In this document: positions 750-8,670 of the stretch, piece after piece
How the letters are laid out: every line of letters begins with the position of its first letter
Numbering within the stretch: position 1 is the first letter of the stretch
NCBI GenBank assembly: GCA_934402315.1
Contig: CAKRTS010000031.1
Location: 1-15,910 of the forward strand
Reading direction: 5' to 3'
Length of the DNA stretch: 15,910 bases
DNA from: an uncultured Acetatifactor sp.
Lineage (GTDB): Bacteria > Bacillota > Clostridia > Lachnospirales > Lachnospiraceae
The notes under the pieces: generated by a model
What the model was told of the DNA's origin: nothing
Database searches by the model: none
The model's input: the letters and a program-made list of their open reading frames with translations, nothing else
Program-made: the position numbers and the translations under genes

Positions 750-2469
750 TCGAGATGCAGTTCCGCCCCTTCCACATATTTTCTCTCCATCTTGTGACGC
801 AGCTTACGGGTCGCCACAGAGTCAAAAATAATTGAGAAATCATAATCCTCCGGGTACAGCTCCGCAGCTGCCACCTGCAGTCTGACCCGCTTATGGCTGA
901 TCCACATCTTTCTATCGCGCAGCTGCACCCGCAGCACCCCTTTTTCATTCACCGGCTCACATACAATACCAATCTTTTTATCCGGGTAAACCATGACGCT
1001 GTCACCGCGCCGGAACTTTTCCGTGAGTTCTGCTTTCTGTCCTGTCAGCGCTCCGCTGTTCTTTTTCTTTTGAATGCGAGGGCCCTGTTGGTATGCCGTG
1101 CGCTTCTTTTCCGTCTTCTCCGGCTCAGATATGTCCAAATTTGCAGGAGCTTCCACACCCTTTACACAATCCCCGCATGGCGGCTTCGGTATTCCCCGGA
1201 GCTTCGACGCTTCCCCCATCCTCGCTCCGTATGCCGCGCGCTCCGCCGTCCGAAGCATTGTCTCCGGCATTCCAAGTCTCGCCGCGATATAGAAGGCACA
1301 GCTCTCTCCCGCCTCCCCGATCTCCATTTTATAGAGCGGGCGCAGGCTTTCCTTGTCGAAGGTCATTCTGGCATTGATAATGCCCTCCGCCTGTTCCGCA
1401 TAGGTTTTCACCTCCGGGTAATGGGTCGTCACGAGGAAGAGACAGCCTCTCCTACGCAGTTCCTCCAGAATCGCAACCGCAATGCCCATTCCCTCCGCCG
1501 GGTCAGTGCCCGAACCGAGTTCATCCATGATCACCAGACTTTCCCTGTTCACCTTTTGCAGAATATCCAGCACATTTGTAATGTGCGCCGAAAAGGTAGA
1601 CAGGTTTTCAGACAGATTCTGTCCGTCTCCGATGTCGCAGAGGTAATTGCTGTTCATGCAGATGTTCGCCTGTTCGCAGCAGACATGAAGTCCGCACTGT
1701 GCCATCATGCAGTTGACGGCAACCGTCTTGATCGCCACCGTCTTACCGCCCGTGTTGGGGCCGGTAATCACGACGCCCCTGTAACCCGCGCCCTGCACCG
1801 GCTTCGTCTCCACATCCGGTGCCTGTTTCACATTGCCGCCCGGCTCTCCGATGCTGAAATCCTGCGGTACGCACACGGCGCGGTCCATCAGCGGATGTCT
1901 CGCCGCCGTCAGCCTGATCCTTCTCTCTGTGTTGATGTCCGGGGCGGCGCAGCCAAGCTCCATGCTCAGCTTTCCCTTAGAGAAGCAGAAGTCCAGCTTC
2001 TCCATCGTTTTCAGATTCTGCTCCATTGTCTCCCCCTGCTCTCCCAGCATGGCAGACAGCGTATACAGTATCCTTCTCTCCTCATTCTCCTCATCAATCC
2101 GCATCAGCTGCAGTTCCTCGCTGTACTTCGCCACAGCCGTCGGCTCAATGAACAGGGTATTGCCCGTAGCCGACTTGTCGATCACACTGCCGCTCACACG
2201 GAACTTATATTCTTTCTTCACCGGCACGCAGAGATGCCCGTTCCGGTTTACGCTGTAGCTGTCCGACATGCACTCTTTATTGCTGCGGATCACCGCCTCC
2301 GCCTTTTCCTTCATCTTTTCCTCAATGCGGACAATCCCGCCCTCAGCTCTACCTCCGAGAGAACCGGCGCCGCCTCCTGAATCTCTCTCTTCGCGCTGTC
2401 TGTCAGCGCAAGCGCGCTCCAGATCTCCTTTATCTTATCAAATTCCAAAATCTTTTCCGTCTGATTCAT
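740..2469 (-). pseudogene. mutS2: mutS2-family gene, internally deleted and frameshifted
   Basis: MutS2 proteins are ABC-type ATPases of the MutS superfamily that act on recombination intermediates or collided ribosomes. The N-terminus starts at the ATG at 2469, behind a GAGAGAGGG site, and reads MNQTEKILEFDKIKEIW, the usual MutS2 opening. After about 44 residues it goes out of frame and stops at 2311. The rest resumes in another frame, open from about 2340 and with an ATG at 2314. By comparison with B. subtilis MutS2 recalled from memory, roughly 115-125 residues of the core region are missing at the join. The remaining part has Walker A GPNTGGKT, the GQNLSENLSTFSAHI segment, Walker B with DELGSGTDPAEG, and TTHYPEVK. 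It has no Smr domain, as in the short Clostridia form. The ATGA overlap at 2311-2314 could let the 524-residue C-terminal part be translated separately. Confidence 0.85.
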
Positions 2470-2502
2470 TTCAATCCCTCTCTCTGCTACAATAATGCAC
2501 GC

Positions 2503-2530
2503 AAAAAGAGCACAGCCATACAGCCATGCT
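2503..2530 (-). terminator. Intrinsic terminator 34 bases before the mutS2 start
   Basis: Read on the minus strand, AGCATGGC (2530-2523) pairs with GCTGTGCT (2516-2509) over a 6-nt loop, giving eight pairs of which two are G-U. It is followed by C and five Ts (2507-2503). It lies between the 2783-2812 promoter and the mutS2 start at 2469. It therefore either ends an independent RNA or acts as an attenuator in the mutS2 leader. Confidence 0.7.
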
Positions 2531-2777
2531 CCTTCAATCGTTTCCTTCACAACAAATATCCGCCGTTCACCATCCATGTCAAATGCCGGCTCACCTGCGT
2601 TCATTCTATCCGTCAATCCGCAGGAAATCCCGCCGATTGCAAACTCTGTCCATCGCAACTGTAATGATATTCGGGCACACTCCGAGCCTGAAATCCCGAA
2701 TCTTCACCCTGCAATATTTATTTTGCATTTACCTTTACAATTACCGACGACAAAAACATTCCTCGCTCTCTTTTAAT
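2503..2777 (-). ncRNA. Putative structured non-coding RNA or long leader RNA upstream of mutS2
   Basis: This stretch holds no convincing gene but has the layout of a transcription unit. A near-consensus promoter at 2783-2812 lies before it, and an intrinsic terminator at 2503-2530 ends it, giving about 275 nt. Helices readable by eye include ATTCGGG (2701-2695) with CCCGAAT (2675-2669); a hairpin at 2639-2614 (CAATC with GATTG, then GCGGG with CCTGC over an ATTT loop); CCTGCG (2624-2619) with CGCAGG (2599-2594); GCCG (2590-2587) with CGGC (2565-2562); and CAATCG (2639-2634) plus TTTCC (2627-2623) with GGAAACGATTG (2545-2535). Some of these exclude each other. I do not recognise the class: not SRP, RNase P, tmRNA, T-box or cobalamin RNA. 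A raiA-type RNA is possible by size and lineage only. Confidence 0.55.
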
Positions 2778-2782
2778 AAACC

Positions 2783-2812
2783 TATATAACCACACCGTTT
2801 TCCCGTTGTCAA
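2783..2812 (-). promoter_or_regulatory. Strong housekeeping-sigma promoter facing the RNA and mutS2
   Basis: On the minus strand a perfect TTGACA (2812-2807) is followed, with 17 or 18 bases between, by TTATAT or TATATA (2789-2783). The predicted start is near 2776. The -35 box overlaps the stop codon of the acyltransferase gene that ends at 2809, so there is no room for a terminator between them. Confidence 0.7.
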
Positions 2813-4101
2813 GAAGATTTTGTCCTGCGCCTGTTGGATGAAGACCTTGTCAGCTTATACAGCTCCTCCGTTGCAAGTCTCGTCTTCGCCACAATATCTC
2901 CGCCCTCCTTCGGGAAACAGTAATACAGCACCTCCGTATTGCCGATGCAGATCATGTCGCCCACCTCGTACCAGTAATAGTCAGAGTAGAGGCTGTAGGA
3001 GGCCGGCGGCTTCTGGGAATAATCGAGCTTTCCGTCGCAGCCTGTCAGGTGGAAGCCGTCTGTGCCATGGTGCAGTCTGCCGCTCCCGACCTTATAGATG
3101 CATCCCATATTTACCATCATGCAGATATCGACAGCCACATCCAGCTCATAGCTGCCCTCCTCAAGCTCTTTTCTGACACATTCCCGCTCCCAGCGATACC
3201 AGTCGGGAACATGGGCAAACTCCGTGTCTCCGTCAGCCGCCTCCATGAAGCCCATCTCTGTCAGCGAGTATTCCTTGCCGCAGCTCTGGCAGGTGAGCTT
3301 TGTCCCCTTGCCGAGCATCTTTCCCTCTGTGCTGCAGTGCGGGCATTTGTAGAGGACACGGTTCAGGCAGTCCGCACGGAAGGTCTCCTCGATCCTGACA
3401 TTGTTCTCCTGCTGCCAGCGGAAGTTGTCGAAGGTGAATTTCTCCGTCAGAATGGCATTCAGCTCCGCAACGCTCTTATTGGCAATCTCCTCGGGGGAAA
3501 GAAGATATTCCATATCCGCCGAGACATCCACCTCGCGCAGCTGGAGATTATTGTACAGCGGATCTCTTGCAAACGCTCCGTAGGTCTTGATCATTACGAC
3601 CGGAACACCCAACATTTTCAAACATTTCCCGAGACTTTCCGGCAGCGGGGTGGCTGTTCCGTCAAAGCTGTAGCTCGCCTCCGGGAACATCAGCACAGAG
3701 TTTTTCAGCTTTTTAAACGCAAACATCATGTCACGGACAAGAAGCATATCCATCACAAACTTCTTTGTCGGAATACAGCCGATCCTGTACATCAGACCAC
3801 TCTTTCCGACAAATCCGTCTGAGGTACAGACGATATTAAAGGGACGAGGGTACAGAATCGTCGCAGCGATTTTCAGATCAATAAAACTGGAATGGTTCAT
3901 CAGTATCAGGCAAGGCTCCTTTTTCCCGAGTCTATCCATTCCGATCTCCCGACAGGTAAAATTAGTCGCCTTCAGATCCGAAGCCGACAGAAGCTTCAGG
4001 AGTGTCCGAAAACCGATTCCCGGTTTCCTCGGAAACCGATGCAGTCCAACCGGCTTCGCCAGCACATCCTCATAGCTCATCTCTTTTATTTTTATCTTCA
4101 T
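2809..4101 (-). CDS. PlsC-like glycerolipid acyltransferase with C-terminal zinc ribbon
   Basis: A 430-residue protein. Residues about 40-200 look like a PlsC/LPLAT acyltransferase: NHSSFID gives the catalytic H70-x4-D75, and FPEASYSFDG (139-148) matches the substrate-binding FPEG block. Such enzymes acylate lysophosphatidate or related lipids at the membrane. After it comes a CPHC and CQSC pair (C253, C256, C271, C274), a clear zinc-ribbon pattern. A roughly 150-residue C-terminal part of unknown fold follows, with several Tyr/Trp and a basic Ser/Arg tail. The extra domains make it about twice the length of plain PlsC (roughly 200-250 residues), so the lipid or other acceptor cannot be named. 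The ATG at 4101 has only a modest GGGCGGG site upstream. No transmembrane segment is obvious. Confidence 0.75.
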   Translation of the reverse strand: MKIKIKEMSYEDVLAKPVGLHRFPRKPGIGFRTLLKLLSASDLKATNFTCREIGMDRLGKKEPCLILMNHSSFIDLKIAATILYPRPFNIVCTSDGFVGKSGLMYRIGCIPTKKFVMDMLLVRDMMFAFKKLKNSVLMFPEASYSFDGTATPLPESLGKCLKMLGVPVVMIKTYGAFARDPLYNNLQLREVDVSADMEYLLSPEEIANKSVAELNAILTEKFTFDNFRWQQENNVRIEETFRADCLNRVLYKCPHCSTEGKMLGKGTKLTCQSCGKEYSLTEMGFMEAADGDTEFAHVPDWYRWERECVRKELEEGSYELDVAVDICMMVNMGCIYKVGSGRLHHGTDGFHLTGCDGKLDYSQKPPASYSLYSDYYWYEVGDMICIGNTEVLYYCFPKEGGDIVAKTRLATEELYKLTRSSSNRRRTKSS

Positions 4102-4227: not shown

Positions 4228-4240
4228 GTTGAAATTCGGT

Positions 4241-4355
4241 CTTGCGCAATGAGAATCTGCGAACCGTGTCAGGTTGGGAACAAAGCAGCACTAAGCAGAA
4301 CCTTTCATGTGCCGCAAGGCAGCCGGGTGGAGTTGTATCCGGGTGTGCGGTTTTT
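4241..4355 (+). ncRNA. ffs: Signal recognition particle RNA, small bacterial (4.5S) type
   Basis: The conserved Ffh-binding helix is plain. GTCAGG is followed by TTG (4274-4276), the tetraloop GGAA (4277-4280), then CAA (4281-4283) and AGCAGC, the SRP domain IV signature with a complete three-pair stem under the loop. The ends pair as UUGCGCA (4242-4248) with UGUGCGG (4344-4350), and five Ts follow, so the closing stem doubles as a terminator. The RNA joins Ffh to deliver nascent membrane and secreted proteins to FtsY. The exact ends are estimates of a few bases. It has no Alu domain, so it is the short form rather than the B. subtilis long form. Confidence 0.93.
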
Positions 4356-4381: not shown

Positions 4382-5305
4382 ATGTCAATGACTCCCGAAA
4401 AGATAACTTCATATATGTCGGACTGCACGCTCTGCCCGCGCAGATGCCATGCCAACCGCGCAGCGGGGCAGACAGGCTTCTGCGGTCAGACCGCCCAGCT
4501 CCGCGCTGCAAGGGCAGCCCTGCATTTCTGGGAGGAGCCCTGTATCTCGGGCGATTGCGGCTCCGGTACGGTCTTCTTCTCCGGCTGTAGCCTGCAATGC
4601 ATTTTCTGCCAGAATCATGAGATTGCTCTGGGTAAATCCGGCAAGGTCATCTCCGTGGAACGCCTGTCCCAGATCTTTCTGGGACTTCAGGATAAGGGCG
4701 CTGCCAACATCAACCTTGTCACGGCAGGACATTTCATCCCACAGGTCTGCCGCGCCTTAGAGCTTTCCAAGGCAGACGGCCTGTCCATTCCTATCGTCTA
4801 TAACACCGGCAGCTATGAAGAGGTGGGTTCACTTCGGCTTCTGGAAGGTCTCATAGACATCTGGCTGCCGGATCTGAAATACTTTTCCGGTGACCTCTCT
4901 GCCCGCTACTCCTCTGCTCCGGACTATTTTCAGGCTGCAACGGCTGCGATTGCAGAAATGTTCCGCCAGACCCCGGCCGCCGTATTCGATACCCAAACCG
5001 GGCTGATGCAGCGGGGAATCATTGTGCGTCACCTCATGCTCCCCGGTCAGGCTGCCGACTCCAAAAAGATTCTGAGGTATCTGCATACCACCTACGGCGA
5101 TGCCATTTATATCAGCATCATGAATCAGTACACTCCCCTTGCGGGTGTGAGCGAAATTCCCGAATTAAACCGTAAGGTCGCACCGGAGGAATACCGCCGG
5201 GTTCTGGATTTCGCGGACAGGATCGGCATTGAAAACGGCTTTATGCAGGAGGACGGTACCGCGGCAGAGAGCTTTATCCCGCCTTTCGACTACGAGGGCG
5301 TATAG
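4382..5305 (+). CDS. PflA-like radical SAM protein (COG1313 type)
   Basis: A 307-residue cytosolic radical SAM protein related to pyruvate formate-lyase activases. The [4Fe-4S] motif is C69-x3-C73-x2-C76 in GCSLQCIFCQNHE. An N-terminal cysteine cluster (C15, C18, C22, C34), typical of this subgroup, may bind a second metal. The later VYNTGSY, DIWLPDLKYF and RHLMLPG segments fit the partial TIM barrel of this family. Its substrate is unknown and no glycyl-radical enzyme gene is adjacent, so activase function is only inferred. ATGs occur at 4382 and 4388 and neither has a strong ribosome site; the first gives the usual length. It starts 27 bases after the SRP RNA and converges on the next gene with an 8-bp gap, with no terminator seen between. 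Confidence 0.85.
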   Translation: MSMTPEKITSYMSDCTLCPRRCHANRAAGQTGFCGQTAQLRAARAALHFWEEPCISGDCGSGTVFFSGCSLQCIFCQNHEIALGKSGKVISVERLSQIFLGLQDKGAANINLVTAGHFIPQVCRALELSKADGLSIPIVYNTGSYEEVGSLRLLEGLIDIWLPDLKYFSGDLSARYSSAPDYFQAATAAIAEMFRQTPAAVFDTQTGLMQRGIIVRHLMLPGQAADSKKILRYLHTTYGDAIYISIMNQYTPLAGVSEIPELNRKVAPEEYRRVLDFADRIGIENGFMQEDGTAAESFIPPFDYEGV

Positions 5306-7488: not shown

Positions 7489-8601
7489 TTAGTTGGTAAT
7501 AACCTGCTCGGTTTCCTTATCGAATACATGAATCTTCTCGATATCAAATGCAAATCTGATGCTGTCACCAGGTCTTGCAGTTGTACGAGAGTCAACTCTT
7601 GCTGTGATCGGGAACTCATCGAGATCAAAGTACAGATAAACTTCTGCACCAAGAAGCTCGTATACCTTAACGGTAGACTCAAATACGCTCTGAGGTGAGC
7701 TCTCAATGAACATCTCGGAATCATATACATCCTCAGGACGAATACCGAAGGTAACAACCTTTCCGTCATAGCCGCCATCAATCAGCTTCTTGGACTTTGC
7801 AGGAGGCAGAGGAATGCTGTGACCTGCGATCTCAAGGTTAGCTGTGCTGCCGTTTATCTTAACGGTAGCATCAAGGAAGTTCATCTGAGGAGATCCCATG
7901 AATCCTGCAACGAACAGATTGCAAGGCTTCTCATACAGATTCTGAGGAGTATCAACCTGCTGGATAACACCGTCCTTCATAACAACGATTCTGGTACCAA
8001 GCGTCATAGCCTCAGTCTGGTCATGTGTAACGTAGATGATGGTGGTTCCCAGTCTCTGATGCAGCTTAGCGATCTCAATACGCATCTGTACACGCAGCTT
8101 TGCATCCAGATTGGACAAAGGCTCATCCATCAGGAATACCTTAGGGTTACGAACGATTGCACGACCCATGGCAACACGCTGTCTCTGACCACCGGACAGT
8201 GCCTTGGGCTTACGATCAAGAAGAGGAGTCAGATCAAGAATCTTAGCTGCTTCCTTAACCATCTTATCGATCTGATCCTTGGGAACCTTTCTAAGCTTCA
8301 GTCCGAATGCCATGTTGTCATATACGGACATATGAGGATACAGAGCGTAGTTCTGGAATACCATCGCGATATCACGATCCTTAGGCTCTACATCATTTAC
8401 AACTCTGTCACCGATCTTCAGCTCACCGGAAGAGATGTCTTCCAGACCTGCGATCATACGAAGGGTTGTGGACTTACCACATCCGGAAGGACCAACAAAG
8501 ATGATGAACTCCTGATCTGCAATCTGAAGGTTGAAATTCTTAACTGCTTCAAAGCCGTTAGGATATACCTTGCAAACATTTGTCAAAGATAAACTTGCCA
8601 T
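7489..8601 (-). CDS. ugpC: Sugar ABC transporter ATP-binding protein (UgpC/MsmK/MalK type)
   Basis: The ATPase subunit that powers carbohydrate ABC importers at the cytoplasmic face of the membrane. It has Walker A GPSGCGKST (37-45), Q-loop Q83, signature LSGGQ (135-139), Walker B VFLMDEP (155-161) and H193. A C-terminal OB/TOBE regulatory region (about 235-365) carries the FGIRPEDV segment typical of MalK/UgpC. The 370-residue length is normal. The ATG at 8601 has AGGAG seven bases upstream. No permease or solute-binding gene is next to it, and it has its own promoter and terminator. This fits the stand-alone MsmK-type ATPase shared by several sugar importers in Firmicutes; the glycerol-phosphate name should not be read as a substrate. 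Its codon use is more biased than its neighbours' by eye, suggesting high expression. Confidence 0.95.
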   Translation of the reverse strand: MASLSLTNVCKVYPNGFEAVKNFNLQIADQEFIIFVGPSGCGKSTTLRMIAGLEDISSGELKIGDRVVNDVEPKDRDIAMVFQNYALYPHMSVYDNMAFGLKLRKVPKDQIDKMVKEAAKILDLTPLLDRKPKALSGGQRQRVAMGRAIVRNPKVFLMDEPLSNLDAKLRVQMRIEIAKLHQRLGTTIIYVTHDQTEAMTLGTRIVVMKDGVIQQVDTPQNLYEKPCNLFVAGFMGSPQMNFLDATVKINGSTANLEIAGHSIPLPPAKSKKLIDGGYDGKVVTFGIRPEDVYDSEMFIESSPQSVFESTVKVYELLGAEVYLYFDLDEFPITARVDSRTTARPGDSIRFAFDIEKIHVFDKETEQVITN

Positions 8602-8670
8602 AAAAAACTCCTTTCACAATACAATCACTCGCCATTTGTAACGCGATTTCTCGTCGCTTGACCTAGAAAC

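What the first reader, a model, noticed from the sequence alone, without database searches (positions are those of the whole stretch)
2503..2812. Self-contained transcription unit for an unassigned structured RNA
Between the acyltransferase stop and the broken mutS2 lies a TTGACA/TATATA promoter, about 275 nt without a convincing gene, and an intrinsic terminator, all on the minus strand. Several helices of 5-11 pairs can be drawn inside. The size and free-standing layout suggest a non-coding RNA, or a long leader that attenuates mutS2. I cannot match it to a known class; a raiA-type RNA is one guess from lineage and size alone.
Basis: partly seen in the sequence, partly recalled or inferred. 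Interest (0 to 1): 0.75.

Follow-up and report, generated by a model that had tools for sequence, protein, structure and literature searches.

The report
Leader-peptide switch before mutS2-like gene
The stretch is probably not a free-standing RNA but an RNA switch that carries an 11-codon gene and a stop signal, one of a new family in gut Lachnospiraceae that seems to let stalled ribosomes turn on a ribosome-rescue-type protein and drug-exporter-type operons.

Summary
Promoter, structured RNA and terminator at 2812-2503 (minus) are real (fold z -4.9). No Rfam family, raiA included, reaches its cut-off. Relatives occur in 54 of 138 'genus' and 46 of 397 family genomes. The core covaries. An intrinsic terminator follows, then, 12-368 nt on in 28 of 29 measured cases, a Smr-less MutS2 paralogue (MutS2B). 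Leader and MutS2B coincide in 50 genomes of 54 each, p 7e-28. Other copies head ABC-2, GNAT or methyltransferase genes; 19 canonical mutS2 upstream regions had none. Best reading: ribosome-mediated transcription attenuation; a ribosome stalled on the peptide opens helix P1 and lets polymerase pass the terminator. The antiterminator is only modestly supported and fails in the window, whose own mutS2B copy is broken. New family and target of a known principle; inducer untested.

The parts
2783..2812 (-). Promoter: -35 TTGACA 2812-2807, -10 TATATA 2788-2783; the -35 overlaps the acyltransferase stop codon
   Evidence: sequence; similar promoter in relatives, 34 of 45 with at least 10 of 12
2761..2764 (-). 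Shine-Dalgarno GAGG of the leader peptide
   Evidence: sequence; aligned SD in relatives
2718..2753 (-). Leader peptide ORF, TTG start, (M)SSVIVKVNAK-stop, 11 codons plus stop
   Evidence: such an ORF in all 37 loci found with model R1 and in 38 of 40 loci from R2
2735..2754 (-). P1 5' arm in the minimum-energy fold, inside the leader ORF
   Evidence: fold; family P1 covaries
2636..2664 (-). P1 3' arm: the minimum-energy fold uses 2664-2645, the family model R2 aligns UUUGCAAU 2643-2636 instead; the two cannot both form
   Evidence: the window was among the sequences R2 was built from
2710..2727 (-). P2 hairpin TGCAAAATAAATATTGCA; its loop holds the leader stop codon; nearly invariant in close relatives
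2673..2709 (-). P3 hairpin: GGGUG 2709-2705 with UGCCC 2677-2673, inner UUCGGG 2700-2695 with CUCGGA 2686-2681; contains the conserved GGAGUNUGCCC element
   Evidence: fold, alignment
2503..2531 (-). Intrinsic terminator, stem 2531-2523 / 2516-2508, loop 2522-2517, U-run 2507-2503
   Evidence: hairpin of similar sequence in relatives
2344..2469 (-). Start of the mutS2B gene (residues 1-42 of the L019 protein), 33 nt after the U-run
   Evidence: tblastn, distance
770..2335 (-). Rest of mutS2B (residues 156-648) in another frame: about 113 residues missing and a frame change, so the copy is broken here (or misassembled)
   Evidence: MutS_V and TIGR01069

Best explanation
It is the 5' leader of a mutS2-like gene and works by ribosome-mediated transcription attenuation. 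RNA polymerase starts just below 2783 and makes an RNA whose first part encodes an 11-codon leader peptide. When a ribosome translates it freely and leaves, the ORF region pairs with a downstream strand (P1), the terminator at 2531-2503 forms and transcription stops before mutS2B. When the ribosome stalls on the peptide or at its stop codon, as with a translation inhibitor or other ribosome stress, P1 cannot form; its 3' strand is free to pair with the 5' arm of the terminator and polymerase reads on into genes that relieve the stress: a Smr-less MutS2-family ATPase, and in other copies an ABC-2 exporter, GNAT acetyltransferases or a methyltransferase. Shown here by sequence: promoter, ORF, covarying core, terminator, gene association. 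Inferred: translation, stalling, its trigger, antitermination, and the function of MutS2B.
For: SD-led ORF open in all 37 R1 loci and 38 of 40 R2 loci, ending K or N in 36 and R in 2 of those 38 although one search did not ask for it; synonymous share of single-base codon changes 0.352 against 0.203 +- 0.075 for permuted columns (12 of 300). Core covariation: 24 of 35 pairs with double changes, 102 cells against 35.0 +- 6.6 shuffled and 30-52 slid. Terminator of recurring sequence. Leader and MutS2B: both in 50, one only in 4 and 4, neither in 80 of 138 genomes, p 7e-28. Of 40 R2 loci that I chose, 38 have downstream ORFs and each has a gene of one small set. Canonical mutS2 upstream regions: 0 of 19 matched by R1 or R2, against 9 of 20 MutS2B pieces by R2 at E 0.01. 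In transcripts cut in the terminator loop, sequestration of the terminator 5' arm rises when the ORF is masked, 0.29 to 0.65, by more than 0.1 in 26 of 33. B. subtilis MutS2 splits stalled ribosomes and its loss gives erythromycin sensitivity (PMC10897456, passages).
Against: With the whole terminator present, equilibrium folding keeps it whether or not the ORF is masked (0.93 free; 0.92, 0.92, 0.88 masked). Antiterminator pairs pair more than slid versions but do not covary above shuffles, RNAduplex showed no consistent excess over shuffles, and the actual segment beats shuffled ones only modestly (0.37 against 0.27, 19 of 27, p 0.001); the window is a negative case in both tests (0.59 to 0.38; 0.01 against 0.20). 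The coding signal from synonymous change alone is moderate, and the models were built from sequences that carry the ORF. The covariation controls do not remove relatedness fully. Four of 54 MutS2B genomes gave no R2 match (two of them, G009 and G056, do show a leader). In relatives up to 368 nt separate terminator and gene, room for another promoter. MutS2B lacks the Smr domain, which in B. subtilis promotes binding to collided ribosomes. No expression, ribosome-profiling or induction data.
Confidence: 0.74

Rival explanations
1. A stand-alone structured small RNA (raiA-like or a new class) with its own promoter and terminator; the short ORF is accidental and the nearby genes are passengers.
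For: Own promoter and terminator, very stable fold, strong covariation, up to 368 nt between terminator and next gene in some relatives.
Against: SD-led ORF open in 37 of 37 and 38 of 40 loci with a K/N-stop end; same strand and upstream of a limited gene set in the 38 loci with downstream ORFs and in 43 of 59 leaders within 4.5 kb of mutS2B; no Rfam match at cut-off.
Confidence: 0.12
2. A leader that controls translation or RNA stability of mutS2B (ermC-type translational attenuation) rather than termination.
For: Leader peptide, P1 overlapping the ORF; ermC-type systems share this anatomy (described in PMC4191407 passages).
Against: An intrinsic terminator of recurring sequence lies between ORF and gene, and the terminator to start codon distance varies from 12 to 368 nt. 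Pairing over the mutS2B ribosome site was not examined.
Confidence: 0.08
3. A metabolite riboswitch or amino-acid attenuator (T-box, trp-type).
For: Structured core with conserved unpaired elements (GGAGUCUGCCC, GCCUUACAAU); terminator.
Against: No Rfam riboswitch or T-box at the site; the peptides show no run of one amino acid; the targets seen are not biosynthetic genes.
Confidence: 0.05

Closest known systems
BmrB leader of the bmrBCD operon, Bacillus subtilis (PMC4191407; abstract, outline and passages seen)
   Same: Short translated ORF, intrinsic terminator and alternative stem-loops ahead of an ABC exporter; induced by lincomycin, erythromycin, chloramphenicol.
   Different: In BmrB the terminator lies within the bmrB-coding region; here a 10-14 codon ORF is followed by a covarying core and a separate terminator; targets are MutS2B and ABC-2 operons. 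No sequence relation was tested.
MsrDL leader of msrD (PMC10314930; abstract and passages seen)
   Same: Very short peptide (MYLIFM) whose stalling at the UAA stop, with macrolides, keeps an intrinsic terminator from forming before the gene of a ribosome-acting ATPase.
   Different: Different peptide, structured core and target family; stalling is not shown here.
MutS2 (B. subtilis; PMC10897456; abstract and passages seen; PDB 7qv3)
   Same: MutS2B of L019 matches TIGR01069 (547.6 bits) and B. subtilis MutS2 (E 5e-104); its model best fits MutS2 structures.
   Different: No Smr domain; about 630-720 residues in the 37 intact copies listed rather than about 800; a second copy beside canonical MutS2 in many genomes.

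Membership tests
Ribosome-mediated transcription attenuator with leader peptide | Short translated ORF with ribosome-binding site in the leader | tested here: met
   By sequence conservation only; translation itself not measured
Ribosome-mediated transcription attenuator with leader peptide | Intrinsic terminator between leader ORF and regulated gene | tested here: met
   Window 2531-2503; automatic scan found one in 36 of 47 leaders, by eye 31 of them the recurring hairpin, and missed the window's own
Ribosome-mediated transcription attenuator with leader peptide | Mutually exclusive antiterminator formed when the ORF is occupied | tested here: inconclusive
   no; 26 of 33 yes; duplex test no excess; pairing yes, covariation no; modest; window negative
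Ribosome-mediated transcription attenuator with leader peptide | Induction depends on translation or stalling of the leader | not testable with these tools
   needs reporter, toeprint or ribosome profiling
raiA motif RNA | Match to the Rfam covariance model | tested here: not met
   window and 36 loci of relatives
T-box or known riboswitch | Rfam match at the site | tested here: not met
   (the T-box in L113 and the SAM riboswitch in L092 lie elsewhere in those loci)
Amino-acid-starvation attenuator | Run of regulatory codons for one amino acid | tested here: not met
   peptide list read by eye
Canonical MutS2 (downstream protein) | MutS2 core and ABC ATPase | tested here: met
   on the intact L019/L118 protein
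Canonical MutS2 (downstream protein) | KOW domain | tested here: inconclusive
   five-strand barrel 572-614 at pLDDT about 84 in the model, weak sequence resemblance, no Pfam hit
Canonical MutS2 (downstream protein) | C-terminal Smr domain | tested here: not met
   no Pfam Smr up to E 1; the chain ends after a short helix

The most novel reading that the evidence does not exclude
A Lachnospiraceae-wide regulon in which one dedicated arrest peptide, roughly M-L-S-[IV]-V-x-x-E-x-x-A-[K/N]-stop, reports inhibited ribosomes and switches on a dedicated Smr-less MutS2 paralogue as an inducible ribosome-rescue or resistance factor, together with an ABC-2 exporter, GNATs or a methyltransferase.
Probability: 0.5. 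Interest if true: 0.85.

Novelty: new variant of a known kind. Interest (0 to 1): 0.72.

Why it matters
MutS2 was only recently shown to split stalled ribosomes (PMC10897456). A MutS2 paralogue held under a peptide-sensing attenuator, and sharing that attenuator with exporter-type operons, would mean that ribosome splitting is an induced stress or drug response in major gut commensals, parallel to ABC-F and Erm systems. It also gives a structured RNA family that Rfam 15 does not match at cut-off, and a defined short peptide whose stalling can be tested directly in vitro.

Tried and rejected
raiA and every other Rfam class: none at cut-off. The near misses are RsaOG on the other strand of the window (16.8 of 50 bits) and Yfr19 over the 3' end of the L008 leader (28.5 of 70 bits, E 1.1). 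Equilibrium folding of the whole leader as a test of switching: negative. RNAduplex between the stretch downstream of the ORF and the terminator 5' arm against shuffles: no consistent excess. Antiterminator covariation: not above shuffles. An earlier count said that the leader-ORF pattern was absent from canonical mutS2 controls; that pattern was not in fact run on them (no gene start was found there). The valid control is the model search: 0 of 19. The first P2 column assignment was off by one and was corrected. In one search the pattern itself demanded a K, N or R last residue, and by eye about four of the 77 entries are spurious (from L031, L036, L041, L189). Papers: none held MutS2 with 'transcription attenuation'; one review held MutS2 with 'leader peptide' (listing only); the listings show nothing on this leader. 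PMC5171806 (passages) does not name MutS; PMC11633108 (passages) reports that MutS2 and RqcH co-occur.

Full report
What is in the window. On the minus strand between the acyltransferase stop (2809) and the mutS2-like start (2469) lie TTGACA/TATATA with an 18-nt spacer, about 275 nt of RNA, and a nine-pair terminator hairpin with five U. The RNA folds at -90.2 kcal/mol, z -4.91, better than all 200 shuffles; the plus strand gives z -1.34. The generic scan does not list this promoter or terminator, so their reality rests on recurrence in relatives. Rfam finds only the small SRP RNA at 4233-4332 (+) in the whole window at cut-off, and at the site, up to E 10, one sub-threshold match on the other strand.

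Relatives. The acyltransferase protein gave 80 loci (the best of 120), many from Acetatifactor and other Lachnospiraceae records. Of these, L014, L008 and L019 hold a relative of the RNA downstream of the acyltransferase (nhmmer); the other 77 gave no nhmmer hit, and a covariance model gave only weak ones there, the best L070 at E 0.024. That model, built from those three alone (R1), found the window at E 0.0026. R1 matched 24 of 138 genomes of the 'genus' of L019 and 14 of 397 of the family at E 0.01 (37 loci, G002 in both). A second model from 34 sequences including the window (R2) matched 54 of 138, 46 of 397 and 2 of 291 genomes (genus, family, class); the two class hits, G002 and G458, belong to the family set. 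At E 0.01 per genome a few of the weakest may be chance.

A hidden leader peptide. All 37 R1 loci carry, inside the 5' arm of P1, an ORF with Shine-Dalgarno that ends in the loop of the P2 hairpin, TGCAAAATAAATATTGCA in the window (L081-L083 are copies of L008, L014, L019 there). In one search the pattern asked for [ACT][KN] before the stop. In one search, where the last residue was not part of the pattern, I could pick an ORF in register in 38 of 40 R2 loci (not in L260 and L261); 36 end in K or N and two in R. In 38 leaders the ORF has 12 (30), 11 (7) or 10 (1) codons; L280 and L285 have 14 and 13. Among 77 pattern matches, about four of them spurious, the stop is TAA 63, TGA 13, TAG 1. Synonymous changes are enriched only moderately (0.352 against 0.203 +- 0.075, reached by 12 of 300 permutations), as expected for a stretch also held by base pairing. 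The window's version starts at TTG 2753: (M)SSVIVKVNAK.

Structure. On 38 sequences (A6; nine of the 47 were left out before aligning) the named helices P1, P2, P4 and terminator pair in 83.1% of cells, 24 of 35 pairs show double changes, 102 such cells against 35.0 +- 6.6 shuffled and 30-52 when slid. All seven pairs of P4 and nine of fourteen of P1 show double changes. The structure was read off one member and the sequences are related, so part of the excess is expected. R2 used 34 of these 38. In the window the minimum-energy P1 uses 2664-2645 while the family model aligns 2643-2636, so its exact 3' arm is open.

Terminator and promoter. An automatic scan found a terminator in 36 of 47 leaders; by eye 31 are variants of AGCATG-R-CTGTATGGTCATGCT-Tn and five are other hairpins; it missed the window's own. 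From terminator to the mutS2B start is 12-368 nt in 28 of 29 measured leaders; the 29th (L206) is 3.2 kb with an ABC gene between; four of the 33 examined had no start in reach. A sigma-A-like promoter with at least 10 of 12 matches precedes 34 of 45 leaders, mean 10.1 against 7.5 in shuffles.

What lies downstream. The mutS2-like protein (MutS2B, here of L019) is TIGR01069 at 547.6 bits, closest to B. subtilis MutS2 among solved chains, with the ABC ATPase, a predicted KOW-like barrel and no Smr domain. In 138 genomes MutS2B (54 genomes) and the R2 leader (54) coincide in 50, p 7e-28; 43 of 59 leaders lie within 4.5 kb upstream on the same strand. Of the four MutS2B genomes without an R2 match there, G009 matched weakly in a smaller search (E 0.0012) and G056 has a pattern match; of the four leader-only genomes, G099 has a mutS2B lacking its middle, G046 an ABC operon and G013 GNATs, and G082 is a weak match not looked at. 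I fetched 40 R2 loci of my choosing, weighted towards leaders not next to mutS2B, so the proportions are not representative; 38 have downstream ORFs, and the first recognised gene is mutS2B in 21, an ABC-2 ATPase with permease genes in 8 (one followed by mutS2B), TM protein-GNAT-mutS2B in 3, GNAT-mutS2B in 2, GNAT in 2, methyltransferase in 2 (Pfam). Operons with leader, ABC ATPase and, further on, mutS2B are also seen in G093, G105, G006 and G069. Upstream regions of canonical mutS2 gave 0 of 19 matches (R1, R2) against 9 of 20 MutS2B pieces of up to one kilobase by R2 at E 0.01.

Mechanism. The anatomy (promoter, short ORF, P1 across the ORF, terminator, gene) is that of ribosome-mediated transcription attenuation. 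The proposed antiterminator pairs the P1 3' strand (GCC...UGCUUAAUA) with the terminator 5' arm (UUAAGCAUGGC). Against: the complete terminator wins at equilibrium, a duplex test showed no consistent excess, and these pairs do not covary above shuffles. For: they pair in 78.2% of cells against 32-54% when slid; in transcripts that end in the terminator loop, sequestration of the 5' arm rises from 0.29 to 0.65 when the ORF is masked (by more than 0.1 in 26 of 33); and in the 27 leaders that could be mapped the actual segment pairs more than its shuffles (0.37 against 0.27, 19 of 27, p 0.001). The window fails both of the last two. That the trigger is a ribosome-targeting drug or collision stress is inferred from the targets: MutS2 splits stalled ribosomes and its loss makes B. 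subtilis erythromycin-sensitive; in that plate assay a Walker B mutant was sensitive while KOW and Smr mutants were only modestly so, but KOW and especially Smr promote binding to collided ribosomes, which speaks against equating the Smr-less protein with MutS2 (PMC10897456, passages). BmrB and MsrDL are precedents for the mode of control. The peptides have no amino-acid run that would suit starvation sensing. A likeness of SIVV/SVIV to macrolide-stalled Erm leader peptides is recalled from memory only.

State in the window. mutS2B here aligns in two pieces, residues 1-42 and 156-648 of the L019 protein, in different frames: broken, or misassembled. The copy of L014 also lies in two frames (G002). 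So the leader may outlive its gene in this strain.

Verdict. It is a new leader-peptide attenuator family, by sequence, with a new kind of target; expression evidence is wanting.

Noticed in passing
window 4233-4332 (+): Bacterial small SRP RNA (76.3 bits) just before a radical-SAM-like gene (4382-5305; Pfam score below its cut-off).
   Followed up: no
L014 (G002:C143:9010-10571): The mutS2B copy of this relative is also split over two reading frames, at another site than in the window.
   Followed up: partly
L189 (G099:C35), 2173-3178: Behind a leader and an ABC ATPase lies a mutS2B-like gene lacking its middle (residues about 260-566, the ATPase region).
   Followed up: no
G001:C51, G002:C47, G004:C8, G058:C364: Second leader copies in genomes that already have one near mutS2B; these head ABC-2 operons.
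   Followed up: partly
L260 and L261 (G092:C30, G043:C56): Leader-like matches before a methyltransferase gene in which no short ORF of 8-14 inner codons was found in register.
   Followed up: no
window 8556-8621 (-): Weak R2 match (17.6 bits, E 0.017) across the start of the ABC transporter ATPase gene; probably chance.
   Followed up: no
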